Both the position numbers and the translations under genes were made by a program. The notes below the pieces were generated by a model that had not been told where the DNA came from, ran no database searches, and was given only the letters and a program-made list of their open reading frames with translations. Below are positions 16,291 to 63,834 of a stretch of DNA of 64,000 nucleotides, one piece after another; the stretch's first letter is position 1, and each line of letters begins with the position of its first letter. Source of the DNA: Bolinopsis microptera (Eukaryota > Ctenophora > Tentaculata > Lobata > Bolinopsidae); contig NC_087075.1 of assembly GCF_026151205.1 (NCBI RefSeq), forward strand, positions 618,501 through 682,500, given 5' to 3'.

Positions 16291-16299
16291 ATAGGTTGG

Positions 16300-38047: not shown

Positions 38048-38148
38048 AATAGCTTGAGTTTGGAGTCCTGTACCTAACAGGAACACCTATCTTCGGCGTG
38101 TGTGGTAACCCTGCAATGTGCTTTGTCTGTATTTTCATTTCATCTTAA

Positions 38149-38698: not shown

Positions 38699-38735
<37 letters not shown>

Positions 38736-42700: not shown

Positions 42701-45700
42701 CATTGTATTGTTCAGGTACGGGATACTGGTAACTAGAAAGTAAGCATTGTATTGTTCAGGTACGGGATACTGGTAACTAGAAAGTAAGCATTGTATTGTT
42801 CAGGTACGGGATGCTGGTAACTAGAAAGTAAGCATTGTATTGTTCAGGTACGGGATACTGGTAACTAGAAAGTAAGCATTGTATTGTTCAGGTACGGGAT
42901 ACTGGTAACTAGAAAGTAAGCATTGTATTGTTCAGGTACGGGAAACTGGTAACTAGAAAGTAAGCATTGTATTGTTCAGGTACGGGATACTGGTAACTAG
43001 AAAGTAAGCATTGTGTTGTTCAGGTACGGGATACTGGTAACTAGAAAGTAAGCATCGTATTGTTCAGGTACGGGATACTGGTAACTAGAAAGTAAGCATT
43101 GTATTGTTCAGGTACGGGATACTGGTAACTAGAAAGTAAGCATTGTATTGTTCAGGTACGGGATACTGGTAACTAGAAAGTAAGCATTGTATTGTTCAGG
43201 TACGGGATACTGGTAACTAGAAAGTAAGCATTGTATTGTTCAGGTACGGGATACTGGTAACTAGAAAGTAAGCATCGTATTGTTCAGGTACGGGATACTG
43301 GTAACTAGAAAGTAAGCATTGTATCGTTCAGGTACAGGATACTGGTAACTAGAAAGTAAGCATTGTATTGTTCAGGTACGGGATACTGGTAACTAGAAAG
43401 TAAGCATTGTATTGTTCAGGTACGGGATACTGGTAAACTAGAAAGTAAACATTGTATTGTTCAGGTACGGGATACTGGTAACTAGAAAGAGAGCTCATTT
43501 TACTGTGGCATTTATTTGGGTATATTCCAGCTGCTGTTCCGTCATCACAGCCTTCAGCAAGGGAGAGGTCCACTTCTTTCCGGGTTAGTAGTGTACTGAT
43601 GTAGACAAAACTCTTGATTTAAATCGTTATCCTTATCTCTAGAGTAAGTCATCTCACTATTTCAGATAGTGCTATGTGTAGAGTAAGTCACCTCACTATT
43701 TCAGATAGTGCTATGTGTAGAGTAAGTCACCTCACTATTTCAGATAGTGCTATGTGTAGAGTAAGTCACCTCACTATTTTAGATGGTGCTATGTGTAGAG
43801 TAAGTCACCTCACTATTTCAGATGGTGCTATGTGTAGAGTAAGTCACCTCACTATTTCAGATAGTGCTATGTGTAGAGTAAGTCACCTCACTATTTCAGA
43901 TAGTGCTATGTGTAGAGTAAGTCACCTCACTATTTCAGATAGTGCTATGTGTAGAGTAAGTCACCTCACTATTTCAGATGGTGCTATGTGTAGAGTAAGT
44001 CACCTCACTATTTCAGATGGTGCTATGTGTAGAGTAAGTCACCTCACTATTTCAGATAGTGCTATGTGTAGAGTAAGTCACCTCACTATTTCAGATAGTG
44101 CTATGTGTAGAGTAAGTCACCTCACTATTTCAGATAGTGTTATGTGTAGAGTAAGTCACCTCACTATTTCAGATAGTGCTATGTGTAGAGTAAGTCACCT
44201 CACTATTTCAGATAGTGCTATGTGTAGAGTAAGTCACCTCACTATTTCAGATAGTGCTATGTGTAGAGTAAGTCACCTCACTATTTCAGATGGTGCTATG
44301 TGTAGAGTAAGTCACCTCACTATTTCAGATGGTGCTATGTGTAGAGTAAGTCACCTCACTATTTCAGATAGTGCTATGTGTAGAGTAAGTCACCTCACTA
44401 TTTCAGATAGTGCTATGTGTAGAGTAAGTCACCTCACTATTTCAGATAGTGCTATGTGTAGAGTAAGTCACCTCACTATTTCAGATAGTGCTATGTGTAG
44501 AGTAAGTCACCTCACTATTTCAGATAGTGCTATGTGTAGAGTAAGTCACCTCACTATTTCAGATAGTGCTATGTGTAGAGTAAGTCACCTCACTATTTCA
44601 GATAGTGCTATGTGTAGAGTAAGTCACCTCACTATTTCAGATAGTGCTATGTGTAGAGTAAGTCACCTCACTATTTCAGATAGTGCTATGTGTAGAGTAA
44701 GTCACCTCACTATTTCAGATAGTGCTATGTGTAGAGTAAGTCACCTCACTATTTCAGATAGTGCTATGTGTAGAGTAAGTCACCTCACTATTTCAGATAG
44801 TGCTATGTGTAGAGTAAGTCACCTCACTATTTCAGATAGTGCTATGTGTAGAGTAAGTCACCTCACTATTTCAGATAGTGCTATGTGTAGAGTAAGTCAC
44901 CTCACTATTTCAGATAGTGCTATGTGTAGAGTAAGTCACCTGAACTCACCCTTGAGACGCCTGCTTCTCTCTACCCTTCTAGGTAAACGCTTACTTAAAC
45001 TTCTAAAATCACATTTTTCTAAAATCACGTGACACAAATAAACCAATAAGAACACAGTTTTAACACTACTCGATTTCTAAATTAAGCGCAGTTTTGTCGA
45101 TTTTTAAAGATCCCGTTAACCAAAATGTGTCGAGAGACAAACTATTTAAGATAAATTGATGGTTAAAAAATAAGAAGAGCACCGTAAAATAAACTGCACG
45201 CCGCAGTTTATTCGATATTTTGCAATAATAAATCTTCAAGAAATGAACTCAGAAGCTTATGAGTATTAGTACAGTGAACCCCTCCCTGCTACTGGAGTAG
45301 TATTAGTACCTACACTTTGTGTCATAGTTTTTATTAGAGTGCTAATAATAGCAGGGGTATACGAACCCCTGTACACCCCTGAATAATAGTATCTACTTGA
45401 AATTATCTAGATAAGTAAATAAAGAAATTACGGGTTTTATCTAGATAATCCTATCTAAATATTATCTAGATGCCAACCCTGCTCAAAGTTAAATATATAT
45501 TATATATTATATAAATATAAATATAAATCATTAATTAAAATTTAAAATTTACATTTCGCAGGAGTAGTGCCCTTTGTACTGGTAATCTCTACAAATATCT
45601 GTCTCTGCGTTCTTGCTAGAATAAAAATAATGCAAGAAAACGAGGTTAGTTTCATAATAATATTACTAATAATGATATAAAAATTTCTTTAGTCATATAG

Positions 45701-48700
45701 GTTAATTATAATTTTACTAAGTATCGCACTAAATCGTCTTAAATAAAATCAACCCTTCGAAGTTGGATGATTGAAATCTTCCTTCCATTTTCATGATCAG
45801 TTTACTTTTAATTTTATTGGTGAGTATAGTTTACCGGCTTATGCGATTATTCCATGGTTTACACTACTGTAACCATAATTACATTAGGTAACCATAATTA
45901 CATTAGGTAACCATAGTAACATTATGTAACCATAATTACATTAGGTAACCATAATTACATTAGGTAACCATAGTAACATTAGGTAACCATAATTACATTA
46001 GGTAACCATAGTAACATTAGGTCGTAGTGGCACTTAACAGAAGAATGTCTGAAGGAGTAGCAAAGTGCTCAGTTTCACGCAAACCTCCCAGCACAGCTAT
46101 AAAAGGTAAAAATACAATAAAGCTCTAGACTCTAATGTATAAACTCCAAGCACAGCTATAAAAGGCCGCACATAAGTTCGGCCATATTTTGCGAAAAGTG
46201 CGATCCCAGCTGATTCTGCCTAAAATTGCTTGATATGCAGCTAGTGTGCGGCACTATTAGTGCGGCTAGTGTGCGGCGAATATTTGAGAAATGTGGCAAA
46301 CATGCGGCGAAAAGTTAAACAATACTACATGGGGTTAGTTTAATAATTCTTTCTATAAGAAAAAATGAGTATTGCACGATTTACAAAACAATTTTCTTCT
46401 ACTGATAGTGATAAAGGTAACAACTTAATTCCTAAGTTCTCAATGCATTATGTTACTGGGCCGCGCTCCAGGTAATGCATTATGCAGCCGACATGGTAAT
46501 GAGTTGTATCACCTCGTGACCCCCATTGTCGTTTCACTACGATACATGACAGGGGGAGCCGCGCACTCGTGCGCGGCGGATCATACAACGTATGACAAGT
46601 AATGAGTACCAACTAAGCCCAATTTTTAGCTGTATTTACCCTAATTTGCAACTGAACTCGCTGCAATATTTCTGAACTCCAAACTTTACGATAAATTGTT
46701 GCTTTTTATACCTGAAATTATAAAAAATTGTACGGGAAGTTCCAAATAATTGTGCGAAAAAGTGCGGAATATAGTTAAACGAACTCGTCGCATGTTGCCT
46801 CTGTAAGAATACAGTAAAGCAAAGGCGGCTCGTGAGACCTGGCTGGCGGTTTACTTGGGTGTCTGGTCGACGGAATGATAAATTACTGATTACACGCGCG
46901 GCAAACCTGACACCTTATGTTACACGGCACACGCCCATATTTTTTGACAAATTACACGCATGTCGCAGCAAACTTAAAACGGAATCGGAAGAAATGTCGA
47001 TACAACCAAAGAACTCGTACTGTAGTACAAAACGATCGACACGTGCAGTGTGAGCGTGAGACCTGAGACGCGCAGGCCATAGTTTTAAAATTAACTATCA
47101 AGGTCATGGGGGGTGATTCGGAATCAGCGTCCAAAAATACACCGATTCAGATCAATTTCATACCCAAAGGGCCTTTTCACAAGAATTTTCTTAAAATTTG
47201 AGCGAGCGATTTAGTAGGAGCGGTGTCCTAAACCCTAAAAACCATTTAATTAACGATGTCAATTCTTCGCAGCTCGGAGAGGCCCAGTTAAGTAGCGCAT
47301 TTTGCTGATCTAACGAAGCGAGAAGCATAATTGAGTGCGCGGCGCGGCCTAGTATGCAGTAACACATCCCGCTACAATATAAAAACCATCAATTTATACA
47401 GCAATACGAGCGCTGATATGCTTTGTACTTGTAGTGTTTTCAATTAACTATGTGTTAAATTTCGATCTGCAAGTTATCCAAATATGAAATAAGTTTTGGA
47501 CACCTTGAAATTGAAATTCGTTAGGAGCAGACTGCTGACTGCTCTTAAAGAATTTCGACTGAGTCACGTGCGCGTGAACTCGAACGTGAACTCGAACGTT
47601 TGCGCAGTAAAATTGCAGATTTAAAAAAATAAAATATAATTGATAATTGCGCGGCTTATTGGTAAAATGAAAAAAAATAATATTTGCGCGCGCAAATAAT
47701 TAAGAAATAAATTAATAAGTAATTTAATAAATAAATAAGTCACTATCTTTACAGGTATCCTTACAGTTGTAGGGCTATGCTCGGTTGCTATAGTAACGTG
47801 GACACCCAGTATTGCTACTCACTTGTTTACTTACATCAACAAAGTTGATCGTGGCCCGGTCTGGCTGGAACGAGTTAGAATCTGTGCTTACTTTCTCGGA
47901 TCATTTGGTAATTTATAAAGGAGCAGCTGAGTGTAGTTTGGTAATTTACTAAAGTAGCAGAGTGTAGTTTGGTAATTTACTAAAGTAGCAGAGTGTAGTT
48001 TGGTTATTTACTAAAGTAGCAGAGTGTAGTTTGGTAATTTACTAAAGTAGCAGAGTGTAGTTTGGCCTTGGTAATTTACTAAAATAGCAGAGTGTAGTTT
48101 GGTAATTTACTAAAGTAGCAGAGTGTAGTTTGATGATTTACTAAAGTAGCAGAGTGTAGTTTGGTAATTTACTAAAGTAGCAGAGTGTAGTTTGGTAATT
48201 TACTAAAGTAGCAGAGTGTAGTTTGGTAATTTACTAGAGTAGCAGAGTGTAGTTTGGTAATTTACTAGAGCAGCAGAGTGTAGTTTAGTAATTTACTAGA
48301 GTAGCAGAGTGTAGTTTGGTAATTTACTAGAGTAGCAGAGTGTAGTTTGGTAATTTACTAAAGTAGCAGAGTGTAGTTTGGTAATTTACTAGAGCAGCAG
48401 AGTGTAGTTTGGTAATTTACTAGAGTAGCAGAGTGTAGTTTGGTAACTTACTAAAGTAGCAGAGTGTAGTTTGGTAATTTACTAAAGTAGCAGAGTGTAG
48501 TTTAGTAACTATTATTAATTAATTTCTCAGATTATTAATTCCCGAACAAGCGATGTTTTATAACGTGACTATAAATTTCAGCTAACCCAGTGCTGTACAT
48601 GGTGGTTAATAGAGATTTCGTGGCATATCTCCGGATACTAGCAGCACGACGGAGGTGCAAGGACTCCCTCCCTCCGCCCAGACACAACACAGCTCACGTT

Positions 48701-48868
48701 GCAGTAGTGAGAACCTTTAGGAAGTGTAAAATGGAACGCCTTCGGAGAATCAAGGAAAACACTCATGGTTGTCATGGTAGTAGCCTGGCAATGAAGACTC
48801 CGTCTGTTATGTTCGAAGAAATGCGGTCACACGAAAATATTATCAGAGTAGTAGATACTGCTTTATAG
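39710..48868 (+). CDS. Class A GPCR gene, left arm (TM1, TM2 and TM4 exons not found)
   Basis: Exons with matching phases: a 39,710-39,834 (WPLGDTTC, the ECL1 W-x-x-G-x-x-x-C motif, then TM3 ILIYVPLVADIHFIMALSL and HRF in place of DRY); b 43,531-43,583 (VITAFSKGEVHFFP); c 44,914-44,982 (Cys, then SPLRRLLLSTLL, start of TM5); d 45,562-45,644 (VVPFVLVISTNICLCVLARI, TM5 with its Pro); e 46,021-46,105 (basic ICL3, NRRMSEG, SRKPPSTAIK); f 47,755-47,907 (TM6 with TWTP, ECL3, start of TM7); g 48,582-48,868 (NPVLYMVVNRDF, i.e. NPxxY, then a basic C-tail and TAG). Position 7.43 is Phe, so it is not an opsin. Exon a is noisy here; read it in the right arm. Exons b and c are less certain. Ligand unknown. 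Confidence 0.84.
39835..40020 (+). repeat. 15/29-bp minisatellite at the donor of GPCR exon a, left arm
   Basis: The intron opens GTAAGCATTATACTATTCAG and continues with tandem CACTATACTATTCAG and CACTATACTATTCTCATT-type units. Each unit ending TATTCAG resembles an acceptor. Confidence 0.85.
40079..43491 (+). repeat. 44-bp minisatellite (~77 copies), left arm
   Basis: The monomer is GTAAGCATTGTATTGTTCAG followed by GTACGGGATACTGGTAACTAGAAA. A few monomers lack AGAAA and are 39 bp (AACTGTAAGC). The first 20 bases have a donor-like GTAAGC and an acceptor-like TTGTTCAG. The array fills most of the intron between GPCR exons a and b. Copies differ by scattered single substitutions. Confidence 0.97.
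43642..44940 (+). repeat. 39-bp minisatellite (~33 copies), left arm
   Basis: Each monomer runs GTAAGTCACC...CTATTTCAG (22 bases, with donor and acceptor consensus) and then ATAGTGCTATGTGTAGA (17 bases). Because 39 is divisible by three, a 452-codon ORF (43,674-45,032) runs through, repeating MCRVSHLTISDSA. The last monomer's TTTCAG at 44,913 is in phase to act as the acceptor of GPCR exon c. Variants are GATGGTGC and ATAGTGTT. Confidence 0.97.
44983..45561. other. GPCR intron with a possible DNA-transposon terminus (mirror ~57,132-57,710)
   Basis: AT-rich intron. ATTATCTAGAT occurs repeatedly in both orientations at 45,402-45,470, and TCTAGATGCCAACCCTG at 45,465-45,481 resembles, in reverse (CAGGGTTGGCATCTAGA), hAT-type termini starting CAGGGTTGGC. 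A matching partner end and target duplication were not found. Confidence 0.3.
45869..46020 (+). repeat. 19-bp GT...AG minisatellite (8 copies) abutting exon e, left arm
   Basis: Units are GTAACCATAATTACATTAG or GTAACCATAGTAACATTAG. Every complete unit begins GTAACC and ends ATTAG (one ends ATTAT), so each looks like a 19-base intron. The last unit's AG is immediately followed by GPCR exon e at 46,021. Confidence 0.97.
46365..47632 (+). mobile_element. Possible internally deleted transposon in the GPCR intron, left arm
   Basis: Two short coding-like islands in one orientation lie about 1.2 kb apart. At 46,365, MSIARFTKQFSSTDSDK ends at a GTAACA donor-like site. At 47,561-47,632, SRARELERELERLRSKIAD ends in a stop and looks like a coiled-coil terminus. 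Between them are GTGCGGCGAATAT-like repeats and a perfect 9-bp hairpin. This resembles the retained two ends of a transposase gene, but no terminal repeats were identified. It could equally be unrelated intron sequence. Confidence 0.25.
46558..46577. repeat. Perfect 9-bp hairpin (mirror 56,116-56,135)
   Basis: GCCGCGCAC, two bases, GTGCGCGGC: a GC-rich inverted repeat in an AT-rich intron. Confidence 0.8.
47908..48508 (+). repeat. 31-bp minisatellite (~19 copies) starting at the exon f donor, left arm
   Basis: The unit is GTAATTTACTAAAGTAGCAG followed by AGTGTAGTTTG. The first unit begins exactly at the donor of exon f (ATTTG/GTAATTTATAAAG), so every unit carries TTTG/GTAATT. TTTACTAAAG resembles a branch-point sequence and GTAGCAG an acceptor. 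Variants have CTAGAG for CTAAAG. Exon g begins 73 bases after the array. Confidence 0.96.
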
Positions 48869-48873
48869 GAGGC

Positions 48874-48879
48874 AATAAA
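48874..48879 (+). promoter_or_regulatory. Candidate polyadenylation signal of the GPCR gene (left)
   Basis: AATAAA lies five bases after the TAG of exon g. Such a short distance makes it tentative; the mirror lies at about 53,815-53,820. Confidence 0.4.
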
Positions 48880-49030
48880 AGGTAGACTGTAGTGTTGTTA
48901 CACTACAGTATACTAATGCTATTAGTTTTAATTAGTATAATTAGTATTTTAGTCTGAATTGAGTGTTTTAAACTAATTACAACACTACAAATCTATTACA
49001 TTTATTGAGCTATTTAAGAATTTATTTTGA

Positions 49031-49072
49031 CATTTCGTCCCTGATAAAGGCGTGTAGCCGAAACGTCGACAT
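49031..49072 (+). ncRNA. Hammerhead-like core motif (mirror ~53,622-53,663)
   Basis: CTGATAAAGGCGTGTAGCC followed by GAAACGTCGAC. GGC and GCC can pair as stem II between a CTGAtaA box and GAAA. The canonical box is CUGAUGA, so one core base is altered, and stem III cannot be drawn convincingly. Similar CTGATGAAGG...CCGAAACGT motifs occur in Penelope-like and other retroelement remnants. It is more likely a relic than an active ribozyme. Confidence 0.3.
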
Positions 49073-49610
49073 TATTTTGTTTATTACACTGAGTGGAGAC
49101 TCTCACTTCGTCCCAACAATCAAATATGATCAAGTATCAACCCACTCACAAGAACGAAAAATATACATGTTTTCAGAATCCCCTGTAAAAGGAACCTTTT
49201 TCATATTTCTACATTTTCGTAGATTCAGCAAATGCAATAAAACAAACATATTAGCGTTTTTTAATGCAGGTTACATTTTTAATAATATAAAAATAAAATA
49301 TAGAATTGCACATCAGTGGAAGGTTACAGTGATTTTTAGGATCGTAAAAATATATTTTCAAACATCGTAATTAAAATTACAAGAACAGTCAGTTTTTCAT
49401 GCCGTATTAATATCTTTTTTGTTTGTTCCACAGTCCCAATGTTAGTGTTACTGTGGCAACCGCTCCGATTTTACCATTTCAAGACTTCAAACTGAGAAAT
49501 TAAGTTTTATTTAGCTGACAATACATGGTAACATTTAACATTTTGTAAGATCTACAATATAAACGGTTTCGTTTTAAACTCTAAAATCATATCAACATCA
49601 TCTTGTCATA

Positions 49611-49884
49611 ACCAAGTCACTCTTACCACAGTTTAGTAGTAGAAGAGCTCAATAGCACCAAGTCACTCTTACCACAGTTTAGTAGTAGAAGAGCTCAATA
49701 GCAGTCTTACCACAGTTTAGTAGTAGAAGAGCTCAATAGCACCAAGTCACTCTTACCACAGTTTAGTAGTAGAAGAGCTCAATAGCACCAAGTCACTCTT
49801 ACCACAGTTTAGTAGTAGAAGAGCTCAATAGCACTCTTACCACAGTTTAGTAGTAGAAGAGCTCAATAGCACTCTTACCACAGT
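49611..49884 (-). repeat. FYY/stop-codon minisatellite downstream of the oxygenase, left arm
   Basis: Six further copies of the oxygenase's last codons (CTATTGAGCTCTTCTACTAC, then TAAACTGTGGTAAGA) in 38- and 46-bp units follow the real stop. Two short units here read GTAAGAGTG where the right arm reads GTAAGACTG, so the arms are not identical. Confidence 0.95.
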
Positions 49885-51059
49885 TTAGTAGTAGAAGAGC
49901 TCAATAGCACCAAGGTAGTCCTTGATCCATTCTCCGAAAACTTTGTATTTGAGTCCGGCTTGGGTGATAGCTCCACTCATACTACGGCTGATATCGGCAT
50001 CAAATCTGAAGATTTATTTACGAAATAGCGGCTAGTTGAACATTCAGTAGATTACAGGTAAGCAGTATATAACAGTTAATTGGCTGTTTAAAGTTACTTT
50101 TTAAATTTAATTTCTTACTTCTTCAATACAAAAACTCAATACACAAACTCACTGGGGTCCCAGGAAGTAGGTGATAGAGTATCTATCAAAGTCAACTTCA
50201 GCAACTCTGTGTCTGACTGAGGGCACCTTGTTGTCGATGAGGTCATCTACCAGTTTACCGATGTTGACGAGGAAAGCATTGTCTCCTGTCACGGGGGCGG
50301 GTCTGTACTGGTTCTTGTGTAGGATCTGACAATGATTTGAAACTTTTATCAAATAATACAGATTTATACAGCAATAAACGTATATAAAAACAATGGCGAT
50401 AAAGAATGTTTTACGATTTACTTAATCGTAAAATTTTAATATTCTGAGAATAATGAGAAATATTGAGATTGTTTATTTTGATCAGTAGAGGTTTATTTTA
50501 CCTCAAGACCACCGTTGTTGAAGGTGGAGAGGACGGTGACGGTAGAGTCAAATGTGTTCTAGCTCTCTCAGGAGAGTTCCGTCAAAGTCAGAGTACATGT
50601 TGCTGTTGATCCTGGAAGAATTTATTATTTATAATCATAGGGACTGCCAAACACAAGGATTTTTTAAAGGAATATCAAGTACCCATCATATATAGCTGAG
50701 GTGGAATGTAACTCACTGTCTTCGGATGGGGTATTTTCTGAGTCCCATAGCAGAGAACTCGTCCTCAGAAAAGAGAGCGGGCAGGTTAGGGTACTCCATA
50801 GATCGAGCAATGCTCCTGATGAAGGCTCGTCCAATGTTCCTTCTGATTTCAAATCCAGTCTGGAAGGTCTCCTTGAATCCTTTGTCGAAGGTGCAGTTTC
50901 CAGTCTCGGGCCACACGTTGGGTTCCTGGCAGTCGTATCTGAGTTTCTCGAGGATGTCGTCACTCTCGAAGCTTGCAGCTCGGGTCTCGTGGGGTCCAAT
51001 GTTGTAGAGGTTCTTGTATTGAAGGGTGTTCTCAACATCGTCAAGTCCGGGGCAGTATC
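49885..51059 (-). CDS. FYY-terminated oxygenase, left arm (5'-truncated, one frameshift)
   Basis: Mirror copy: exons A 50,717-51,059, B 50,502-50,611, C 50,153-50,325, D 49,885-50,005, reading leftwards. Exons A, C and D encode the same residues as the right arm. Exon B has one extra A on the + strand at about 50,550-50,552, so the coding strand reads CACATTTGAC where the right arm reads CACATTGAC. This puts TGA directly after the His-Ile of the metal-binding His-x-Asp. Either this copy is broken or the base is a homopolymer error. The N-terminal exons are again absent because the axis cuts the gene. Confidence 0.9.
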
Positions 51060-51239
51060 CTGGATATTAGTAATTTTAGATCATTTTAATCATATGAGCT
51101 GCGTCTTACTAGGGGGTAAGTTCTACAAATGGATAGATAATTAGTTGCCACTATCAATTAATTAAGATAATTAGTTGCCAAAGGGCACCACTCACCTCAA
51201 TGAAAAGAGCAAGGAAGTATAAAACAATAATTCCCCTGG

Positions 51240-51455
51240 AAGACTAAAGTAAGTTATTTATCTTTAGATGATACAATTAAGATACAACCATTTGTCGGAA
51301 TTAGACAGTAAAAAAAAAAATAAACAATAACAATAAAAATAATCTCTAGTATAGCAAATAATTTTTATTGATTATGTTTTTATTTACTGACTAATTCGCA
51401 CATGTTTTATCTCATTGTAATCCATCTAAAGTTAAATAACCTTACTTTAGTCTTC
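51240..51455. other. Palindrome axis with poorly matching flanks
   Basis: The arms are nearly identical up to GGAAGACTAAAGTAA, then agree only loosely for about 100 bases on each side of a central CTAG (51,346-51,349). The A and AT runs here differ in length between arms. No N-terminal oxygenase exon is recognisable. An acceptor- and donor-bounded stretch at about 51,460-51,496 (TTCCAG...ATTGAG/GTGAGT) is out of phase with exon A, so it is not called. Confidence 0.8.
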
Positions 51456-51634
51456 CAGGGGAATTATTGTTTTATACTTCCTTGCTCTTTTCATTGAGGT
51501 GAGTGGTGCCCTTTGGCAACTAATTATCTTAATTAATTGATAGTGGCAACTAATTATCTATCCATTTGTAGAACTTACCCCCTAGTAAGACGCAGCTCAT
51601 ATGATTAAAATGATCTAAAATTACTAATATCCAG

Positions 51635-52808
51635 GATACTGCCCCGGACTTGACGATGTTGAGAACACCCTTCAATACAAGAACCTCTACAACATTGGAC
51701 CCCACGAGACCCGAGCTGCAAGCTTCGAGAGTGACGACATCCTCGAGAAACTCAGATACGACTGCCAGGAACCCAACGTGTGGCCCGAGACTGGAAACTG
51801 CACCTTCGACAAAGGATTCAAGGAGACCTTCCAGACTGGATTTGAAATCAGAAGGAACATTGGACGAGCCTTCATCAGGAGCATTGCTCGATCTATGGAG
51901 TACCCTAACCTGCCCGCTCTCTTTTCTGAGGACGAGTTCTCTGCTATGGGACTCAGAAAATACCCCATCCGAAGACAGTGAGTTACATTCCACCTCAGCT
52001 ATATATGATGGGTACTTGATATTCCTTTAAAAAATCCTTGTGTTTGGCAGTCCCTATGATTATAAATAATAAATTCTTCCAGGATCAACAGCAACATGTA
52101 CTCTGACTTTGACGGAACTCTCCTGAGAGAGCTAGAACACATTGACTCTACCGTCACCGTCCTCTCCACCTTCAACAACGGTGGTCTTGAGGTAAAATAA
52201 ACCTCTACTGATCAAAATAAACAATCTCAATATTTCTCATTATTCTCAGAATATTAAAATTTTACGATTAAGTAAATCGTAAAACATTCTTTATCGCCAT
52301 TGTTTTTATATACGTTTATTGCTGTATAAATCTGTATTATTTGATAAAAGTTTCAAATCATTGTCAGATCCTACACAAGAACCAGTACAGACCCGCCCCC
52401 GTGACAGGAGACAATGCTTTCCTCGTCAACATCGGTAAACTGGTAGATGACCTCATCGACAACAAGGTGCCCTCAGTCAGACACAGAGTTGCTGAAGTTG
52501 ACTTTGATAGATACTCTATCACCTACTTCCTGGGACCCCAGTGAGTTTGTGTATTGAGTTTTTGTATTGAAGAAGTAAGAAATTAAATTTAAAAAGTAAC
52601 TTTAAACAGCCAATTAACTGTTATATACTGCTTACCTGTAATCTACTGAATGTTCAACTAGCCGCTATTTCGTAAATAAATCTTCAGATTTGATGCCGAT
52701 ATCAGCCGTAGTATGAGTGGAGCTATCACCCAAGCCGGACTCAAATACAAAGTTTTCGGAGAATGGATCAAGGACTACCTTGGTGCTATTGAGCTCTTCT
52801 ACTACTAA
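51635..52808 (+). CDS. FYY-terminated isopenicillin-N-synthase-like 2OG/Fe(II) oxygenase, right arm (5'-truncated)
   Basis: Four exons in phase: A 51,635-51,977, B 52,083-52,191, C 52,368-52,540, D 52,688-52,808; all introns are GT...AG. They encode 248 residues against about 330-350 for the family, so roughly 90-100 N-terminal residues are missing at the palindrome axis. Exon A opens GYCPGLDDVE if the previous exon ends in G, and has NVWPETGN and the helix GRAFIRSIARSMEY. Exon B carries the metal site His-x-Asp in LEHIDSTVTVLS and GGLE. Exon C has VNIGKLVDDL, the distal His in VRHRV, and the 2OG/substrate-binding Arg-x-Ser in RYSI. The triad is complete. The protein ends IELFYY. FYY-ended homologs are known from luminous ctenophores and have been proposed, not proven, to act in coelenterazine synthesis. 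Confidence 0.93.
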
Positions 52809-53082
52809 ACTGTGGTAAGACTGCTATTGAGCTCTTCTACTACTAAACTGTGGTAAGACTGCTATTGAGCTCTTCTACTACTAAACTGTGGTAAGAGTGA
52901 CTTGGTGCTATTGAGCTCTTCTACTACTAAACTGTGGTAAGAGTGACTTGGTGCTATTGAGCTCTTCTACTACTAAACTGTGGTAAGACTGCTATTGAGC
53001 TCTTCTACTACTAAACTGTGGTAAGAGTGACTTGGTGCTATTGAGCTCTTCTACTACTAAACTGTGGTAAGAGTGACTTGGT
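52809..53082 (+). repeat. FYY/stop-codon minisatellite downstream of the oxygenase, right arm
   Basis: After the real stop at 52,806-52,808 the last coding segment recurs six times (seven FYY-stop strings in all), at spacings of 38, 38, 46, 46, 38 and 46 bp. The long unit adds GTGACTTG. Every unit spells Ala-Ile-Glu-Leu-Phe-Tyr-Tyr-stop in one frame and carries GTGGTAAGA, a donor-like string. The array would sit in the 3' UTR if the AATAAA at 53,182 is used. Confidence 0.96.
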
Positions 53083-53181
53083 TATGACAAGATGATGTTG
53101 ATATGATTTTAGAGTTTAAAACGAAACCGTTTATATTGTAGATCTTACAAAATGTTAAATGTTACCATTTATTGTCAGCTA

Positions 53182-53187
53182 AATAAA
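53182..53187 (+). promoter_or_regulatory. Candidate polyadenylation signal of the oxygenase gene (right)
   Basis: AATAAA, 374 bases after the stop and about 100 bases beyond the FYY array. It is the first such hexamer downstream. Mirror at 49,506-49,511. Confidence 0.5.
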
Positions 53188-53825
53188 ACTTAATTTCTCA
53201 GTTTGAAGTCTTGAAATGGTAAAATCGGAGCGGTTGCCACAGTAACACTAACATTGGGACTGTGGAACAAACAAAAAAGATATTAATACGGCATGAAAAA
53301 CTGACTGTTCTTGTAATTTTAATTACGATGTTTGAAAATATATTTTTACGATCCTAAAAATCACTGTAACCTTCCACTGATGTGCAATTCTATATTTTAT
53401 TTTTATATTATTAAAAATGTAACCTGCATTAAAAAACGCTAATATGTTTGTTTTATTGCATTTGCTGAATCTACGAAAATGTAGAAATATGAAAAAGGTT
53501 CCTTTTACAGGGGATTCTGAAAACATGTATATTTTTCGTTCTTGTGAGTGGGTTGATACTTGATCATATTTGATTGTTGGGGACGAAGTGAGAGTCTCCA
53601 CTCAGTGTAATAAACAAAATAATGTCGACGTTTCGGCTACACGCCTTTATCAGGGACGAAATGTCAAAATAAATTCTTAAATAGCTCAATAAATGTAATA
53701 GATTTGTAGTGTTGTAATTAGTTTAAAACACTCAATTCAGACTAAAATACTAATTATACTAATTAAAACTAATAGCATTAGTATACTGTAGTGTAACAAC
53801 ACTACAGTCTACCTTTTATTGCCTC

Positions 53826-56800
53826 CTATAAAGCAGTATCTACTACTCTGATAATATTTTCGTGTGACCGCATTTCTTCGAACATAACAGACGGAGTCTT
53901 CATTGCCAGGCTACTACCATGACAACCATGAGTGTTTTCCTTGATTCTCCGAAGGCGTTCCATTTTACACTTCCTAAAGGTTCTCACTACTGCAACGTGA
54001 GCTGTGTTGTGTCTGGGCGGAGGGAGGGAGTCCTTGCACCTCCGTCGTGCTGCTAGTATCCGGAGATATGCCACGAAATCTCTATTAACCACCATGTACA
54101 GCACTGGGTTAGCTGAAATTTATAGTCACGTTATAAAACATCGCTTGTTCGGGAATTAATAATCTGAGAAATTAATTAATAATAGTTACTAAACTACACT
54201 CTGCTACTTTAGTAAATTACCAAACTACACTCTGCTACTTTAGTAAGTTACCAAACTACACTCTGCTACTCTAGTAAATTACCAAACTACACTCTGCTGC
54301 TCTAGTAAATTACCAAACTACACTCTGCTACTTTAGTAAATTACCAAACTACACTCTGCTACTCTAGTAAATTACCAAACTACACTCTGCTACTCTAGTA
54401 AATTACTAAACTACACTCTGCTGCTCTAGTAAATTACCAAACTACACTCTGCTACTCTAGTAAATTACCAAACTACACTCTGCTACTTTAGTAAATTACC
54501 AAACTACACTCTGCTACTTTAGTAAATTACCAAACTACACTCTGCTACTTTAGTAAATCATCAAACTACACTCTGCTACTTTAGTAAATTACCAAACTAC
54601 ACTCTGCTATTTTAGTAAATTACCAAGGCCAAACTACACTCTGCTACTTTAGTAAATTACCAAACTACACTCTGCTACTTTAGTAAATAACCAAACTACA
54701 CTCTGCTACTTTAGTAAATTACCAAACTACACTCTGCTACTTTAGTAAATTACCAAACTACACTCAGCTGCTCCTTTATAAATTACCAAATGATCCGAGA
54801 AAGTAAGCACAGATTCTAACTCGTTCCAGCCAGACCGGGCCACGATCAACTTTGTTGATGTAAGTAAACAAGTGAGTAGCAATACTGGGTGTCCACGTTA
54901 CTATAGCAACCGAGCATAGCCCTACAACTGTAAGGATACCTGTAAAGATAGTGACTTATTTATTTATTAAATTACTTATTAATTTATTTCTTAATTATTT
55001 GCGCGCGCAAATATTATTTTTTTTCATTTTACCAATAAGCCGCGCAATTATCAATTATATTTTATTTTTTAAATCTGCAATTTTACTGCGCAAACGTTCG
55101 AGTTCACGTTCGAGTTCACGCGCACGTGACTCAGTCGAAATTCTTTAAGAGCAGTCAGCAGTCTGCTCCTAACGAATTTCAATTTCAAGGTGTCCAAAAC
55201 TTATTTCATATTTGGATAACTTGCAGATCGAAATTTAACACATAGTTAATTGAAAACACTACAAGTACAAAGCATATCAGCGCTCGTATTGCTGTATAAA
55301 TTGATGGTTTTTATATTGTAGCGGGATGTGTTACTGCATACTAGGCCGCGCCGCGCACTCAATTATGCTTCTCGCTTCGTTAGATCAGCAAAATGCGCTA
55401 CTTAACTGGGCCTCTCCGAGCTGCGAAGAATTGACATCGTTAATTAAATGGTTTTTAGGGTTTAGGACACCGCTCCTACTAAATCGCTCGCTCAAATTTT
55501 AAGAAAATTCTTGTGAAAAGGCCCTTTGGGTATGAAATTGATCTGAATCGGTGTATTTTTGGACGCTGATTCCGAATCACCCCCCATGACCTTGATAGTT
55601 AATTTTAAAACTATGGCCTGCGCGTCTCAGGTCTCACGCTCACACTGCACGTGTCGATCGTTTTGTACTACAGTACGAGTTCTTTGGTTGTATCGACATT
55701 TCTTCCGATTCCGTTTTAAGTTTGCTGCGACATGCGTGTAATTTGTCAAAAAATATGGGCGTGTGCCGTGTAACATAAGGTGTCAGGTTTGCCGCGCGTG
55801 TAATCAGTAATTTATCATTCCGTCGACCAGACACCCAAGTAAACCGCCAGCCAGGTCTCACGAGCCGCCTTTGCTTTACTGTATTCTTACAGAGGCAACA
55901 TGCGACGAGTTCGTTTAACTATATTCCGCACTTTTTCGCACAATTATTTGGAACTTCCCGTACAATTTTTTATAATTTCAGGTATAAAAAGCAACAATTT
56001 ATCGTAAAGTTTGGAGTTCAGAAATATTGCAGCGAGTTCAGTTGCAAATTAGGGTAAATACAGCTAAAAATTGGGCTTAGTTGGTACTCATTACTTGTCA
56101 TACGTTGTATGATCCGCCGCGCACGAGTGCGCGGCTCCCCCTGTCATGTATCGTAGTGAAACGACAATGGGGGTCACGAGGTGATACAACTCATTACCAT
56201 GTCGGCTGCATAATGCATTACCTGGAGCGCGGCCCAGTAACATAATGCATTGAGAACTTAGGAATTAAGTTGTTACCTTTATCACTATCAGTAGAAGAAA
56301 ATTGTTTTGTAAATCGTGCAATACTCATTTTTTCTTATAGAAAGAATTATTAAACTAACCCCATGTAGTATTGTTTAACTTTTCGCCGCATGTTTGCCAC
56401 ATTTCTCAAATATTCGCCGCACACTAGCCGCACTAATAGTGCCGCACACTAGCTGCATATCAAGCAATTTTAGGCAGAATCAGCTGGGATCGCACTTTTC
56501 GCAAAATATGGCCGAACTTATGTGCGGCCTTTTATAGCTGTGCTTGGAGTTTATACATTAGAGTCTAGAGCTTTATTGTATTTTTACCTTTTATAGCTGT
56601 GCTGGGAGGTTTGCGTGAAACTGAGCACTTTGCTACTCCTTCAGACATTCTTCTGTTAAGTGCCACTACGACCTAATGTTACTATGGTTACCTAATGTAA
56701 TTATGGTTACCTAATGTTACTATGGTTACCTAATGTAATTATGGTTACCTAATGTAATTATGGTTACATAATGTTACTATGGTTACCTAATGTAATTATG

Positions 56801-59800
56801 GTTACCTAATGTAATTATGGTTACAGTAGTGTAAACCATGGAATAATCGCATAAGCCGGTAAACTATACTCACCAATAAAATTAAAAGTAAACTGATCAT
56901 GAAAATGGAAGGAAGATTTCAATCATCCAACTTCGAAGGGTTGATTTTATTTAAGACGATTTAGTGCGATACTTAGTAAAATTATAATTAACCTATATGA
57001 CTAAAGAAATTTTTATATCATTATTAGTAATATTATTATGAAACTAACCTCGTTTTCTTGCATTATTTTTATTCTAGCAAGAACGCAGAGACAGATATTT
57101 GTAGAGATTACCAGTACAAAGGGCACTACTCCTGCGAAATGTAAATTTTAAATTTTAATTAATGATTTATATTTATATTTATATAATATATAATATATAT
57201 TTAACTTTGAGCAGGGTTGGCATCTAGATAATATTTAGATAGGATTATCTAGATAAAACCCGTAATTTCTTTATTTACTTATCTAGATAATTTCAAGTAG
57301 ATACTATTATTCAGGGGTGTACAGGGGTTCGTATACCCCTGCTATTATTAGCACTCTAATAAAAACTATGACACAAAGTGTAGGTACTAATACTACTCCA
57401 GTAGCAGGGAGGGGTTCACTGTACTAATACTCATAAGCTTCTGAGTTCATTTCTTGAAGATTTATTATTGCAAAATATCGAATAAACTGCGGCGTGCAGT
57501 TTATTTTACGGTGCTCTTCTTATTTTTTAACCATCAATTTATCTTAAATAGTTTGTCTCTCGACACATTTTGGTTAACGGGATCTTTAAAAATCGACAAA
57601 ACTGCGCTTAATTTAGAAATCGAGTAGTGTTAAAACTGTGTTCTTATTGGTTTATTTGTGTCACGTGATTTTAGAAAAATGTGATTTTAGAAGTTTAAGT
57701 AAGCGTTTACCTAGAAGGGTAGAGAGAAGCAGGCGTCTCAAGGGTGAGTTCAGGTGACTTACTCTACACATAGCACTATCTGAAATAGTGAGGTGACTTA
57801 CTCTACACATAGCACTATCTGAAATAGTGAGGTGACTTACTCTACACATAGCACTATCTGAAATAGTGAGGTGACTTACTCTACACATAGCACTATCTGA
57901 AATAGTGAGGTGACTTACTCTACACATAGCACTATCTGAAATAGTGAGGTGACTTACTCTACACATAGCACTATCTGAAATAGTGAGGTGACTTACTCTA
58001 CACATAGCACTATCTGAAATAGTGAGGTGACTTACTCTACACATAGCACTATCTGAAATAGTGAGGTGACTTACTCTACACATAGCACTATCTGAAATAG
58101 TGAGGTGACTTACTCTACACATAGCACTATCTGAAATAGTGAGGTGACTTACTCTACACATAGCACTATCTGAAATAGTGAGGTGACTTACTCTACACAT
58201 AGCACTATCTGAAATAGTGAGGTGACTTACTCTACACATAGCACTATCTGAAATAGTGAGGTGACTTACTCTACACATAGCACTATCTGAAATAGTGAGG
58301 TGACTTACTCTACACATAGCACTATCTGAAATAGTGAGGTGACTTACTCTACACATAGCACCATCTGAAATAGTGAGGTGACTTACTCTACACATAGCAC
58401 CATCTGAAATAGTGAGGTGACTTACTCTACACATAGCACTATCTGAAATAGTGAGGTGACTTACTCTACACATAGCACTATCTGAAATAGTGAGGTGACT
58501 TACTCTACACATAGCACTATCTGAAATAGTGAGGTGACTTACTCTACACATAACACTATCTGAAATAGTGAGGTGACTTACTCTACACATAGCACTATCT
58601 GAAATAGTGAGGTGACTTACTCTACACATAGCACTATCTGAAATAGTGAGGTGACTTACTCTACACATAGCACCATCTGAAATAGTGAGGTGACTTACTC
58701 TACACATAGCACCATCTGAAATAGTGAGGTGACTTACTCTACACATAGCACTATCTGAAATAGTGAGGTGACTTACTCTACACATAGCACTATCTGAAAT
58801 AGTGAGGTGACTTACTCTACACATAGCACTATCTGAAATAGTGAGGTGACTTACTCTACACATAGCACCATCTGAAATAGTGAGGTGACTTACTCTACAC
58901 ATAGCACCATCTAAAATAGTGAGGTGACTTACTCTACACATAGCACTATCTGAAATAGTGAGGTGACTTACTCTACACATAGCACTATCTGAAATAGTGA
59001 GGTGACTTACTCTACACATAGCACTATCTGAAATAGTGAGATGACTTACTCTAGAGATAAGGATAACGATTTAAATCAAGAGTTTTGTCTACATCAGTAC
59101 ACTACTAACCCGGAAAGAAGTGGACCTCTCCCTTGCTGAAGGCTGTGATGACGGAACAGCAGCTGGAATATACCCAAATAAATGCCACAGTAAAATGAGC
59201 TCTCTTTCTAGTTACCAGTATCCCGTACCTGAACAATACAATGTTTACTTTCTAGTTTACCAGTATCCCGTACCTGAACAATACAATGCTTACTTTCTAG
59301 TTACCAGTATCCCGTACCTGAACAATACAATGCTTACTTTCTAGTTACCAGTATCCTGTACCTGAACGATACAATGCTTACTTTCTAGTTACCAGTATCC
59401 CGTACCTGAACAATACGATGCTTACTTTCTAGTTACCAGTATCCCGTACCTGAACAATACAATGCTTACTTTCTAGTTACCAGTATCCCGTACCTGAACA
59501 ATACAATGCTTACTTTCTAGTTACCAGTATCCCGTACCTGAACAATACAATGCTTACTTTCTAGTTACCAGTATCCCGTACCTGAACAATACAATGCTTA
59601 CTTTCTAGTTACCAGTATCCCGTACCTGAACAATACGATGCTTACTTTCTAGTTACCAGTATCCCGTACCTGAACAACACAATGCTTACTTTCTAGTTAC
59701 CAGTATCCCGTACCTGAACAATACAATGCTTACTTTCTAGTTACCAGTTTCCCGTACCTGAACAATACAATGCTTACTTTCTAGTTACCAGTATCCCGTA

Positions 59801-62800
59801 CCTGAACAATACAATGCTTACTTTCTAGTTACCAGTATCCCGTACCTGAACAATACAATGCTTACTTTCTAGTTACCAGCATCCCGTACCTGAACAATAC
59901 AATGCTTACTTTCTAGTTACCAGTATCCCGTACCTGAACAATACAATGCTTACTTTCTAGTTACCAGTATCCCGTACCTGAACAATACAATGCTTACTTT
60001 CTAGTTACCAGCATCCCGTACCTGAACAATACAATGCTTACTTTCTAGTTACCAGTATCCCGTACCTGAACAATACAATGCTTACTTTCTAGTTACCAGT
60101 ATCCCGTACCTGAACAATACAATTCTTACTTTCTAGTTACCAGTATCTCGTACCTGAACAATACAATGCTTACTTTCTAGTTACCAGTATCCCGTACCTG
60201 AACAATACAATGCTTACTTTCTAGTTACCAGTATCCCGTACCTGAACAATACAATGCTTACTTTCTAGTTACCAGTATCCCGTACCTGAACAATACAATG
60301 CTTACTTTCTAGTTACCAGTATCCCGTACCTGAACGATACAATGCTTACAGTTACCAGTATCCCGTACCTGAACAATACAATGCTTACTTTCTAGTTACC
60401 AGTATCCCGTACCTGAACAATACAATGCTTACTTTCTAGTTACCAGTATCCCGTACCTGAGCAATACAATGCTTACAGTTACCAGTATCCCGTACCTGAA
60501 CAATACAATGCTTACTTTCTAGTTACCAGCATCCCGTACCTGAACAATACAATGCTTACTTTCTAGTTACCAGTATCCCGTACCTGAGCAATACAATGCT
60601 TACAGTTACCAGTATCCCGTACCTGAACAATACAATGCTTACTTTCTAGTTACCAGTATCCCGTACCTGAACAATACAATGCTTACTTTCTAGTTACCAG
60701 TATCCCGTACCTGAACGATACAATGCTTACTTTCTAGTTACCAGTATCCCGTACCTGAACAATACAATGCTTACTTTCTAGTTACCAGTATCCCGTACCT
60801 GAACAATACAATGCTTACTTTCTAGTTACCAGCATCCCGTACCTGAACAATACACTGCTTACTTTCTAGTTACCAGTATCCCGTACCTGAACGATACAAT
60901 GCTTACTTTCTAGTTACCAGTATCCCGTACCTGAACAATACAATGCTTACTTTCTAGTTACCAGCATCCCGTACCTGAACAATACAATGCTTGCTTTCTA
61001 GTTACCAGCATCCCGTACCTAAACAATACAATGCTTACTTTCTAGTTACCAGTATCCCGTACCTGAACAATACAATGCTTACTTTCTAGTTACCAGTATC
61101 CCGTACCTGAACAATACAATGCTTACAGTTACCAGTATCCCGTACCTGAACAATACAATGCTTACTTTCTAGTTACCATTATCCTGTACCTGAACAATAC
61201 AATGCTTACTTTCTAGTTACCAGCATCCCGTACCTGAACAATACAATGCTTACTTTCTAGTTACCAGTATCCCGTACCTGAACAATACAATGCTTACTTT
61301 CTAGTTACCAGTATCCCGTACCTGAACAATACAATGCTTACTTTCTAGTTACCAGTATCCCGTGCCTGAACAATACAATGCTTACTTTCTAGTTACCAGT
61401 ATCCCGTATCTGAACAATAGAATGCTTACTTTCTAGTTACCAGTATCCCGTACCTGAACAATAGAATGCTCTCTTTCTAGTTACCAGTATCCCGTACCTG
61501 AACAATGCAATGCTTACTTTCTAGTTACCAGTATCCCGTATCTGAACAATAGAATGATTACTTTCTAGTTACCAGTATCCCGTACCTGAACGATACAATG
61601 CTTACTTTCTAGTTACCAGTATCCCGTACCTGAACAATAAAATGCTTACTTTCTAGTTACCAGTATCCCGTACCTGAACAATACAATGCTTACTTTCTAG
61701 TTACCAGTATCCCGTACCTGAACAATACAATGCTTATTTTCTAGTTACCAGTATCCCGTACCTGAACAATACAATGCTTACTTTCTAGTTACCAGTATCC
61801 CGTACCTGAACAATACAATGCTTACTTTCTAGTTACCAGTATCCCGTACCTGAACAATACAATGCTTACTTTCTAGTTACCAGTATCCCGTACCTGAACA
61901 ATACAATGCTTACTTTCTAGTTACCAGTATCCCGTACCTGAACAATACAATGCTTACTTTCTAGTTACCAGTATCCGGTACCTGAACAATAGAATGCTTA
62001 CTTTCTAGTTACCAGTATCCCGTACCTGAACAATACAATGCTTACTTTCTAGTTACCATTATCCTGTACCTGAACAATACAATGCTTACTTTCTAGTTAC
62101 CAGTATCCCGTACCTGAACGATACAATGCTTACTTTCTAGTTACCAGTATCCCGTACCTGAACAATACAATGCTTACTTTCTAGTTACCAGCATCCTGTA
62201 CCTGAACAATACAATGCTTACTTTCTAGTTACCAGTATCCCGTACCTGAACAATACACTGCTTACTTTCTAGTTACCAGTATCCCGTACCTGAACAATAC
62301 AATGCTTACTTTCTAGTTACCAGTATCCCGTACCCGAACAATACAATGCTTACTTTCTAGTTACCAGTATCCCGTACCTGAACAATACAATGCTTACTTT
62401 CTAGTTACCAGTATCTCGTACCTGAACAATACAATGCTTACTTTCTAGTTACCAGTATCCCGTACCTGAACAATACAATGCTTACTTTCTAGTTACCAGT
62501 ATCCCGTACCTGAACAATACAATGCTTACTTTCTAGTTACCAGCATCCCGTACCTGAACAATACAATGCTTACTTTCTAGTTACCAGTATCCCGTACCTG
62601 AACAATACAATGCTTTCTGCTACTCCACAAACGTTTGTGATAAGCAGTTTCCCATGATATCTATATTATATATAATGAGAATAGTATAGTGCTGAATAGT
62701 ATAGTGCTGAATAGTATAGTGCTGAATAGTATAGTGCTGAATAGTATAATGAGAATAGTATAGTGCTGAATAGTATAATGAGAATAGTATAGTGCTGAAT

Positions 62801-62984
62801 AGTATAATGAGAATAGTATAGTGCTGAATAGTATAGTGCTGAATAGTATAATGCTTACCGGAGAGGAGAAGAGCAGAAGAGGAAACGATGAAGAGAAAGG
62901 GCCATGATGAAGTGGATGTCAGCAACCAAGGGCACGTAGATCAGAATACCAGACATATAACAGGTGGTGTCTCCTAACGGCCAC
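53826..62984 (-). CDS. Class A GPCR gene, right arm (mirror copy)
   Basis: Mirror of the gene at 39,710-48,868, reading leftwards. Exons: a 62,859-62,984, b 59,110-59,162, c 57,711-57,779, d 57,049-57,131, e 56,588-56,672, f 54,787-54,939, g 53,826-54,112. Exon a is clean here: WPLGDTTCYMSGILIYVP, then ADIHFIMALSLHRFLFC and SSPLR before GTAAGC. TM1 and TM2 exons would lie beyond 63,834 and are not in the window. No TM4 exon is seen between a and b. The gene converges on the FYY oxygenase, with ~1 kb between the two stop codons. Confidence 0.84.
54186..54786 (-). repeat. 31-bp minisatellite, right arm mirror
   Basis: Mirror of 47,908-48,508, beginning at the donor of exon f on the minus strand. 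Confidence 0.96.
55062..56328 (-). mobile_element. Possible internally deleted transposon, right arm mirror
   Basis: Mirror of 46,365-47,632. The A run before the coiled-coil stop is one base shorter here (six instead of seven), which changes the last residues. Confidence 0.25.
56673..56824 (-). repeat. 19-bp GT...AG minisatellite, right arm mirror
   Basis: Mirror of 45,869-46,020, eight units, abutting exon e of the minus-strand GPCR copy. Confidence 0.97.
57753..59051 (-). repeat. 39-bp minisatellite, right arm mirror
   Basis: Mirror of 43,642-44,940, including the pattern of GATGGTGC variants. The mirrored repeat ORF is at 57,661-59,019 on the minus strand. Confidence 0.97.
59204..62615 (-). 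repeat. 44-bp minisatellite, right arm mirror
   Basis: Mirror of 40,079-43,491, with the same order of variant monomers as far as I followed it, for example the 39-bp variants near 60,350, 60,475 and 61,130. Confidence 0.97.
62672..62858 (-). repeat. 15/29-bp minisatellite, right arm mirror
   Basis: Mirror of 39,835-40,020, cleaner. Units read CACTATACTATTCAG on the minus strand, starting directly at the donor of exon a. Confidence 0.88.
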
Positions 62985-63834
62985 CTAGTGGGGGCAGTCG
63001 TCATGGGGGGGGGGGGGGGGTGTCTCCTAACGGCCATCTAGTGGGGGCAGTCGTCATGGGGGGGGGGGGGGGGGGGGGGTGTCTCCTAACGGCCACCTAG
63101 TGGGGGCAGTCGTCATAGGGGGGGGGGGGTGGTGTCTCCTAACGGCCACCTAGTGGGGGCAGTCGTCATGGGGGGGGGGGGGGGTGTCTCCTAACGGCCA
63201 CCTAGTGGGGGCAGTCGTCATGGGGGGGGGGGGGGGGGTGTCTCCTAACGGCCACCTAGTGGGGGCAGTCGTCATAGGGGGGGGGGGGGTGTCTCCTAAC
63301 GGCCACCTAGTGGGGGCAGTCGTCATGGGGGGGGGGGGGGGGTGTCTCCTAACGGCCACCTAGTGGGGGCAGTCGTCATAGGGGGGGTGTCTCCTGACGG
63401 CCACCTAGTGGGGGCAGTCGTCATGGGGGGGGGGGGGGGGTGTCTCCTAACGGCCACCTAGTGGGGGCAGTCGTCATAGGGGGGGTGTCTCCTAACGGCC
63501 ACCTAGTGGGGGCAGTCGTCATAGGGGGGAGGGGGGTGTCTCCTAACGGCCACCTAGTGGGGGCAGTCGTCATAGGGGGGGGGGGGGGGGTGTCTCCTAA
63601 CGGCCACCTAGTGGGGGCAGTCGTCATGGGGGGGGGGTGTCTCCTAACGGCCACCTAGTGGGGGCAGTCGTCATAGGGGGGGTGTCTCCTAACGGCCACC
63701 TAGTGGGGGCAGTCGTCATAGGGGGGGTGTCTCCTAACGGCCACCTAGTGGGGGCAGTCGTCATGGGGGGGGGGGGGGGTGTCTCCTAACGGCCACCTAG
63801 TGGGGGCCAGTCGTCATGGGGGGGGGGGGGGGGG
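62985..63834 (-). repeat. G/C-rich minisatellite (~17 copies), right arm
   Basis: On the minus strand each unit reads GTGGCCGTTAGGAGACACC, a run of 5 to about 21 C (sometimes with interruptions), then ATGACGACTGCCCCCACTAG. The unit is the acceptor plus the first 19 bases of GPCR exon a repeated upstream of that exon. The + strand G runs could form quadruplexes. The array marks the outer end of the right arm. Confidence 0.96.

What the first reader, a model, noticed from the sequence alone, without database searches (positions are those of the whole stretch)
51635..52808. FYY-ended IPNS-like oxygenase: candidate coelenterazine-pathway gene
Directly visible: a complete 2OG/Fe(II) metal triad (His-x-Asp in LEHIDS, distal His in VRHRV, Arg-x-Ser in RYSI) and a C-terminus IELFYY-stop. 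Coelenterazine is built from Phe-Tyr-Tyr, and FYY-ended homologs in luminous ctenophores have been hypothesised to be precursor, enzyme, or both. Here the full intron structure of the C-terminal 248 residues and the neighbouring genes are readable, which transcript data do not give. A role in luminescence is inference.
Basis: partly seen in the sequence, partly recalled or inferred. Interest (0 to 1): 0.9.

Follow-up and report, generated by a model that had tools for sequence, protein, structure and literature searches.

The report
Truncated light-gene copy, mirrored by misassembly
The stretch holds the back two thirds of a comb-jelly gene proposed in 2015 to help make the light-emitting molecule coelenterazine, but this copy lacks its start and sits in a mirror-image duplication that is most likely a genome-assembly error; complete copies lie elsewhere in the same genome.

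Summary
The gene belongs to the "FYY" IPNS-like oxygenases reported in luminous ctenophores in 2015 (PMC4488382).

The locus is not what it seems. It is one arm of a 23.8-kb inverted repeat (39452-63238). The mirror copy on the minus strand has a 1-nt frameshift. Both copies lack exons 1-2, i.e. residues 1-115 of 363.

The palindrome is most likely an assembly artefact. Its centre is an internal repeat fragment seen twice with different, read-error-like changes. Its left flank is error-rich sequence whose 2001-base probe recurs letter for letter on two other chromosomes.

An intact gene lies at C4:133650-135661. Exons 3-6 differ from the window copy by 7 synonymous and 0 nonsynonymous changes, so the window probably holds its other allele. 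Six FYY genes stand in tandem on C6 (one with a stop codon) and one near C4:15.87 Mb.

A role in coelenterazine synthesis remains a published hypothesis that nothing here tests; the FYY tail as self-substrate is unlikely but not excluded.

The parts
51635..51977 (+). Exon 3 of the FYY oxygenase (first exon present); residues 116 onward of the 363-residue intact protein
   Evidence: GT/AG borders and alignment to the intact copy
52083..52191 (+). Exon 4, with His-Ile-Asp (metal ligands)
   Evidence: IPNS alignment
52368..52540 (+). Exon 5, with VRHRV (third ligand) and RYS
   Evidence: IPNS alignment
52688..52808 (+). Exon 6, ending GAIELFYY-stop
49885..51059 (-). Mirror copy of exons 3-6, with a 1-nt frameshift in exon 4 (near 50552)
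39452..63238 (.). Inverted repeat (palindrome), 99.46% self-identity; judged a fold-back assembly artefact
51255..51438 (.). Centre of the palindrome: internal fragment of a high-copy repeat, read in both directions with different error-like changes in each half
1..38699 (+). Error-rich left block with ~18-kb direct repeats; probes 28000-30000 and 37000-38699 recur at 100% identity on C5 (the first also on C1)
52779..53082 (+). Minisatellite that repeats the ELFYY-stop codons (7 exact units, the coding one included)
49611..49914 (-). Mirror copy of the same minisatellite (7 exact units)

Best explanation
This is exons 3-6 (of 6) of one allele of an FYY-family IPNS-like Fe(II) oxygenase gene of a lobate ctenophore, most probably Bolinopsis microptera. 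A fold-back long read at a contig tip most likely made the assembler walk back over the same DNA. That would give a false mirror copy, lose exons 1-2, and leave a tip that was later joined to a gap fill of unpolished sequence. SHOWN: truncation, mirror copy, recurrent left block, intact relatives, no amino-acid change in exons 3-6 against the intact gene. INFERRED: that the palindrome is technical, that the copy is allelic, and the species. How the intact protein most likely works (inferred): a leader-bearing, probably secretory-pathway protein folds like IPNS, binds Fe(II) by His249/Asp251/His305, holds a carboxylate with Arg314/Ser316, and closes its active site with its C-terminal tail. By residue count FYY falls among the last six residues that seal the IPNS pocket. 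If it acts in coelenterazine synthesis (my estimate about 0.35), it more likely oxidises or cyclises a separate Phe/Tyr-derived peptide than its own tail.
For: Arms differ by 3 substitutions and 3 single-base indels over right-arm positions 51441-58713 and carry equal VNTR copy numbers (78.0/78.0, 33.4/33.4, 19.3/19.3). The centre is an internal repeat fragment: 15 compared copies differ from their majority by 0-2 of 104 bases, while the two halves show 8 substitutions + 6 indel runs and 3 + 6; one substitution is shared by both halves, as expected of one repeat copy read twice. Left block: 2001/2001 bases identical on C4, C5 and C1, the other 41 of 44 listed matches at 88-95%; identical on C5 up to window 38699; equal coordinate offsets for the listed matches between C4 and C1 (C4:601898-648500) and between C4 and C5 (C4:601898-657199). 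The right side is anchored, collinear and inverted with C4:95-135 kb. 7 synonymous, 0 nonsynonymous changes against the intact gene. The B. microptera assembly used CLR reads, wtdbg, TGS-GapCloser and pilon (PMC10232365 section 12).
Against: No reads were available. A real palindrome whose arms are kept alike by gene conversion while the centre drifts would also give alike arms and a divergent centre. The 15 repeat copies are the best-scoring ones; more divergent copies exist, so the centre could come from an old copy. The paper on fold-back artefacts found almost none in its three PacBio sets (PMC12870357 passages). Equal VNTR lengths also fit a very recent true duplication. Scaffold counts differ: 232 contigs here, 346 in a published table for B. 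microptera.
Confidence: 0.8

Rival explanations
1. The palindrome is real: a break inside a repeat folded back and copied ~12 kb into an inverted duplication, leaving two 5'-truncated FYY copies whose arms are kept alike by gene conversion.
For: Both arms meet the repeat fragment at the same intron-2 position within one base; centre halves diverge while arms do not.
Against: The left arm has no independent flank: it ends beside a block that recurs on other chromosomes. None of 15 other repeat loci fetched (1.5 kb each side) has arms centred on the repeat. No nonsynonymous change has accumulated.
Confidence: 0.15
2. The window copy is a paralogue from a recent inverted segmental duplication of C4:95-135 kb, not an allele.
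For: Both stretches are placed on one chromosome arm, ~0.55 Mb apart, at 90-99% identity; C4:140 kb has a further near copy at C4:237.7 kb.
Against: Such redundancy near a repeat-filled gap is also what retained haplotypes give; exon 2 of this type occurs once in the assembly.
Confidence: 0.25
3. The FYY oxygenases have nothing to do with luminescence; FYY is an incidental C-terminus of a conserved secretory-pathway oxygenase.
For: About 0.6-0.9 FYY-ended proteins are expected by chance in 16,543 with my assumed residue frequencies. Homologues without FYY exist in this genome (C12, C6:13.9M) and in non-luminous ctenophores (PMC4488382).
Against: PMC4488382 found FYY proteins in nearly all luminous ctenophores examined and in neither non-luminous one, with strong conservation. 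The last 17 residues are identical in all 9 copies compared here in frame.
Confidence: 0.5

Closest known systems
FYY proteins of luminous ctenophores (PMC4488382; Mnemiopsis ML199826a, ML032920_35201, MLRB263543, MLRB263549)
   Same: IPNS-like domain, triad and R-x-S, RELEHXD and GAIELFYY motifs, leader peptide in intact copies, close paralogues, a tandem pair reported in Mnemiopsis
   Different: The window copy lacks residues 1-115; this genome has a tandem array of six on C6 and a minisatellite of the coding end behind the C4 gene
Isopenicillin N synthase (PDB 1bk0)
   Same: Closest solved protein (E 1.5e-7 single sequence; 1.4e-17 profile); triad and R-x-S positions
   Different: Ends FYY instead of Gln-Thr; the tail itself did not align (the profile match stops at IPNS residue 292)
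Fold-back artefacts of long-read sequencing (PMC12870357, passages)
   Same: Near-perfect mirror symmetry about one point, no unique spacer, read-error-like differences at the turn
   Different: Seen here in a finished assembly, not in reads; that paper saw almost none in its three PacBio sets

Membership tests
FYY proteins (PMC4488382) | C-terminal GAIELFYY | tested here: met
FYY proteins (PMC4488382) | Iron-binding H-x-D...H and R-x-S, motif RELEHXD | tested here: met
   alignment to IPNS; sequence
FYY proteins (PMC4488382) | Full length with leader peptide | tested here: not met
   exons 1-2 absent from both window copies; present in 8 of 10 FYY-type copies of the genome, one of these with a stop codon in exon 2. 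So the window holds a fragment of such a gene
FYY proteins (PMC4488382) | Found in luminous but not in non-luminous ctenophores | not tested
   no ctenophore collection on hand
FYY proteins (PMC4488382) | Any role in coelenterazine synthesis | not testable with these tools
   hypothesis of the 2015 paper
Isopenicillin N synthase proper | Penultimate Gln330 that binds the metal without substrate | tested here: not met
   tail is IELFYY; role of Gln330 from passages of PMC5637899
Isopenicillin N synthase proper | Turns ACV into isopenicillin N | not testable with these tools
   needs an assay
Fold-back assembly artefact | Mirror symmetry about a point without a unique spacer | tested here: met
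Fold-back assembly artefact | One arm without an independent genomic flank | tested here: met
   left block recurs letter for letter elsewhere (two probes); right flank anchored
Fold-back assembly artefact | Only symmetric reads over the centre, half depth on the arms | not testable with these tools
   no reads held
Insertion of a transposon by its ends | Repeat terminus at the junction with the gene | tested here: not met
   the junction lies about 120 bases inside the repeat as aligned over 15 copies

The most novel reading that the evidence does not exclude
The FYY oxygenase is both ribosomal precursor and enzyme: its lid-like FYY tail enters the iron site of its own or a neighbouring chain, is oxidised and cyclised, and is released as the coelenterazine core. 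The genome would then hold a multi-copy supply of single-turnover precursors (a six-gene array plus single genes).
Probability: 0.05. Interest if true: 0.95.

Novelty: new member of a known kind. Interest (0 to 1): 0.3.

Why it matters
Coelenterazine synthesis was unsolved in the papers I saw, and FYY proteins are a published candidate. For anyone about to clone or knock out these genes in this assembly, the window copy is a fragment in a probable false mirror; the copies to use are C4:133650-135661, C4:15867414-15869195 and the array at C6:20510082-20523986. So many near-identical copies also mean that a single knockout may show nothing. Synteny, copy-number or palindrome claims in this region should not be trusted before reads are checked.

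Tried and rejected
Real palindrome from a transposon: first favoured when the centre proved to be a repeat, then disfavoured because the junction is internal to the repeat and each half of the centre carries its own changes. Palindromes on other copies of the repeat: one search listed 79 matches and gave 16 loci; the 15 that are not the window showed no arms centred on the repeat within 1.5 kb, only other local inverted repeats or none. The minimum identity ignores one 3-base insertion in L016. A second full allele: exon 2 of this exact type occurs once (C4:135211-135477); the other 9 of 10 exon-2 matches are C4:15.87M, six on C6 and two non-FYY homologues. C4:228.5-238.5 kb as the missing 5' part: homology starts only at C4:139.8 kb, 0 matches to the window. 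Tail alignment to IPNS: the profile match stops at residue 292, so only residue counts place FYY. In one search the exact 18-base unit cannot match the C6 and C4:15.87M genes (one synonymous base differs), so its 0 there means nothing; that those genes lack extra units rests, which lists none at its cut-off. One tail print for the minus copy was out of frame by my slip and is not used. dN and dS were computed for 8 of 36 pairs. Structure prediction was not used: the protein is spliced and the rule asks for letter-for-letter translation. Later FYY work was looked for (listings); I make no claim that none exists. PMC4488382 was read in parts 1-4 of 6 plus the Discussion; PMC10232365 in section 12 and passages; PMC11797021, PMC5637899, PMC12870357 and PMC12221973 in passages (the last gave nothing used); PMC7476103 and PMC6218980 only as listings. 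That missed adapters in CLR reads give fold-backs is recalled.

Full report
WHAT IS THERE. Four exons at 51635-51977, 52083-52191, 52368-52540 and 52688-52808 on the plus strand join to 248 residues ending GAIELFYY-stop, with GT/AG borders. Pfam finds 2OG-FeII_Oxy (E 4.9e-10). The closest solved proteins are isopenicillin N synthases (1bk0, E 1.5e-7 with the intact protein; 1.4e-17 with a four-sequence profile). HID, the H of VRHRV and RYS fall on His214/Asp216, His270 and Arg279/Ser281 of IPNS.

THE GENE IS CUT. The whole genome (G000, 264.65 Mb; the window is C4:618501-682500) has 10 places with exon 3 of the FYY type and two more distant homologues. Eight of the 10 have exons 1 and 2; the two window copies do not. 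The intact gene C4:133650-135661 has six exons and 363 residues with a hydrophobic leader. Pfam finds DIOX_N at residues 51-167 of the intact protein (E 1.6e-7) but not in the window fragment. In the window, homology to the intact gene ends at the first bases of intron 2, so residues 1-115 are missing.

THE PALINDROME. Window 39452-63238 is its own reverse complement at 99.46%. Over right-arm positions 51441-58713 the arms differ by 3 substitutions and 3 single-base indels; one indel breaks exon 4 of the minus copy. Further out, in the 44-base satellite and the G-rich minisatellite, they differ more. Three VNTR arrays have equal copy numbers in both arms: 78.0, 33.4 and 19.3. The centre, 51255-51438, is an internal piece of a high-copy repeat. 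The 15 best-scoring other copies differ from their majority by 0-2 of 104 bases; the two halves of the centre show 8 substitutions plus 6 indel runs, and 3 plus 6. One substitution is common to both halves and to L006; the rest differ between the halves. That is what one repeat copy read twice with errors would give, though an old true palindrome could drift so too. More divergent copies of the repeat exist.

THE FLANKS. To the right, arm and flank run collinear and inverted with C4:95-135 kb at 90-99%. To the left lies an error-rich block with ~18-kb direct repeats: units are 82-83% alike, with 848 mismatches and 1049 gap openings in one 12-kb match. It holds runs of 58 G, 69 T and 34 C. A 2001-base probe from it is 100% identical on C4, C5 and C1; the other 41 of 44 listed matches reach 88-95%. 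A second probe, 37000-39600, is identical on C5 up to window position 38699 and is not listed at 100% on C1. The coordinates of the listed matches keep equal offsets between C4 and C1 over C4:601898-648500, and between C4 and C5 over C4:601898-657199. The simplest reading is one unpolished sequence pasted into three gaps. I tested two probes, not the whole block.

SOURCE AND RECIPE. Genome size (265 Mb in a published table, PMC11797021 passages), a first contig of at least 26.0 Mb (largest chromosome 26.2 Mb in that table) and the FYY genes point to Bolinopsis microptera. This is inference, and the scaffold counts differ (346 there, 232 contigs here). That assembly used PacBio CLR reads, wtdbg 2.4, HiRise, TGS-GapCloser, Purge Haplotigs and pilon (PMC10232365 section 12). 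Fold-back reads are a documented artefact that can tangle assemblies, but the paper I saw found almost none in its three PacBio sets (PMC12870357 passages); that CLR reads with missed adapters fold back is recalled.

WHY PROBABLY ALLELIC. Exons 3-6 of the window copy and of the intact gene differ by 7 synonymous and 0 nonsynonymous changes (dS 0.045, dN 0). If neutral, seven of seven synonymous has a probability of about 2e-5, or 2e-4 if 30% of changes were synonymous. So this is not an old pseudogene. The likeliest reading is the second haplotype of the intact gene with its 5' end lost in assembly; a very recent true duplication is not excluded. C4:140 kb has another near copy at C4:237.7 kb, so the first 0.7 Mb of C4 is redundant in more than one way.

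THE FAMILY IN THIS GENOME. Six tandem genes lie at C6:20510082-20523986, spaced 2.3-2.7 kb; one has a TGA in exon 2. One gene lies at C4:15867414-15869195, in a fetched 10 kb with 4,071 N. The C6 type and the C4:133650-135661 type differ at dS 0.26 and dN 0.042. The nine copies compared in frame end FGEWIKDYLGAIELFYY; the minus copy has the same exon 6. Behind the C4 gene a minisatellite repeats the ELFYY-stop codons: 7 exact units in each window arm and 25 in the intact gene, the coding one included. Each unit ends in a stop, so I take it as a local DNA repeat, not extra coding.

MECHANISM. In IPNS the last residues, with penultimate Gln330, touch the metal without substrate and then close over the substrate (PMC5637899 passages). 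After the R-x-S serine there are 47 residues here and 50 in IPNS, so FYY falls among the last six IPNS residues by count; the tails did not align by sequence. I therefore favour FYY as part of a lid. A role in coelenterazine synthesis on a separate peptide gets about 0.35, self-processing of the tail about 0.05; both are judgement. The idea of a cleaved and cyclised own tail is in print since 2015 (PMC4488382 Discussion).

VERDICT. A real member of a known, interesting family, seen here as a truncated copy in a region most likely misassembled. Interest 0.3.

Noticed in passing
window 1-38699; C5:23348212-23358911; C1:16425246-16427246: Error-rich block with ~18-kb direct repeats whose probes recur at 100% identity on two other chromosomes: probably the same unpolished sequence used to fill three gaps.
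   Followed up: partly
L003/L004, C6:20510082-20523986: Tandem array of six FYY genes with six exons each; the copy at the low-coordinate end has a TGA in exon 2.
   Followed up: partly
window 52779-53082 and 49611-49914; L001 behind the gene's stop codon: Minisatellite that repeats the last codons and stop of the FYY gene: 7 exact units in each window arm, 25 in the intact gene.
   Followed up: partly
C4:95-142 kb, C4:237-240 kb, C4:670-702 kb: Stretches in the first 0.7 Mb of C4 are near copies of each other in direct or inverted order, as retained haplotypes or segmental duplications would be.
   Followed up: partly
L024, C12:9882000-9891999 (reverse strand): Non-FYY homologue in which exons 2 and 3 match as adjoining stretches with no intron 2.
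   Followed up: no
window 57661-59070 (-): A 39-base VNTR stays open for 469 codons because its unit length is a multiple of three; probably not a gene.
   Followed up: no
L023 3-191 (-); window 53826-54119 (-): A 63-residue frame matches 7tm_1 below Pfam's cut-off (E 0.0015); a second frame looks by eye like a receptor's last helix but has no Pfam match. Possible GPCR exons tail to tail with the FYY gene.
   Followed up: partly
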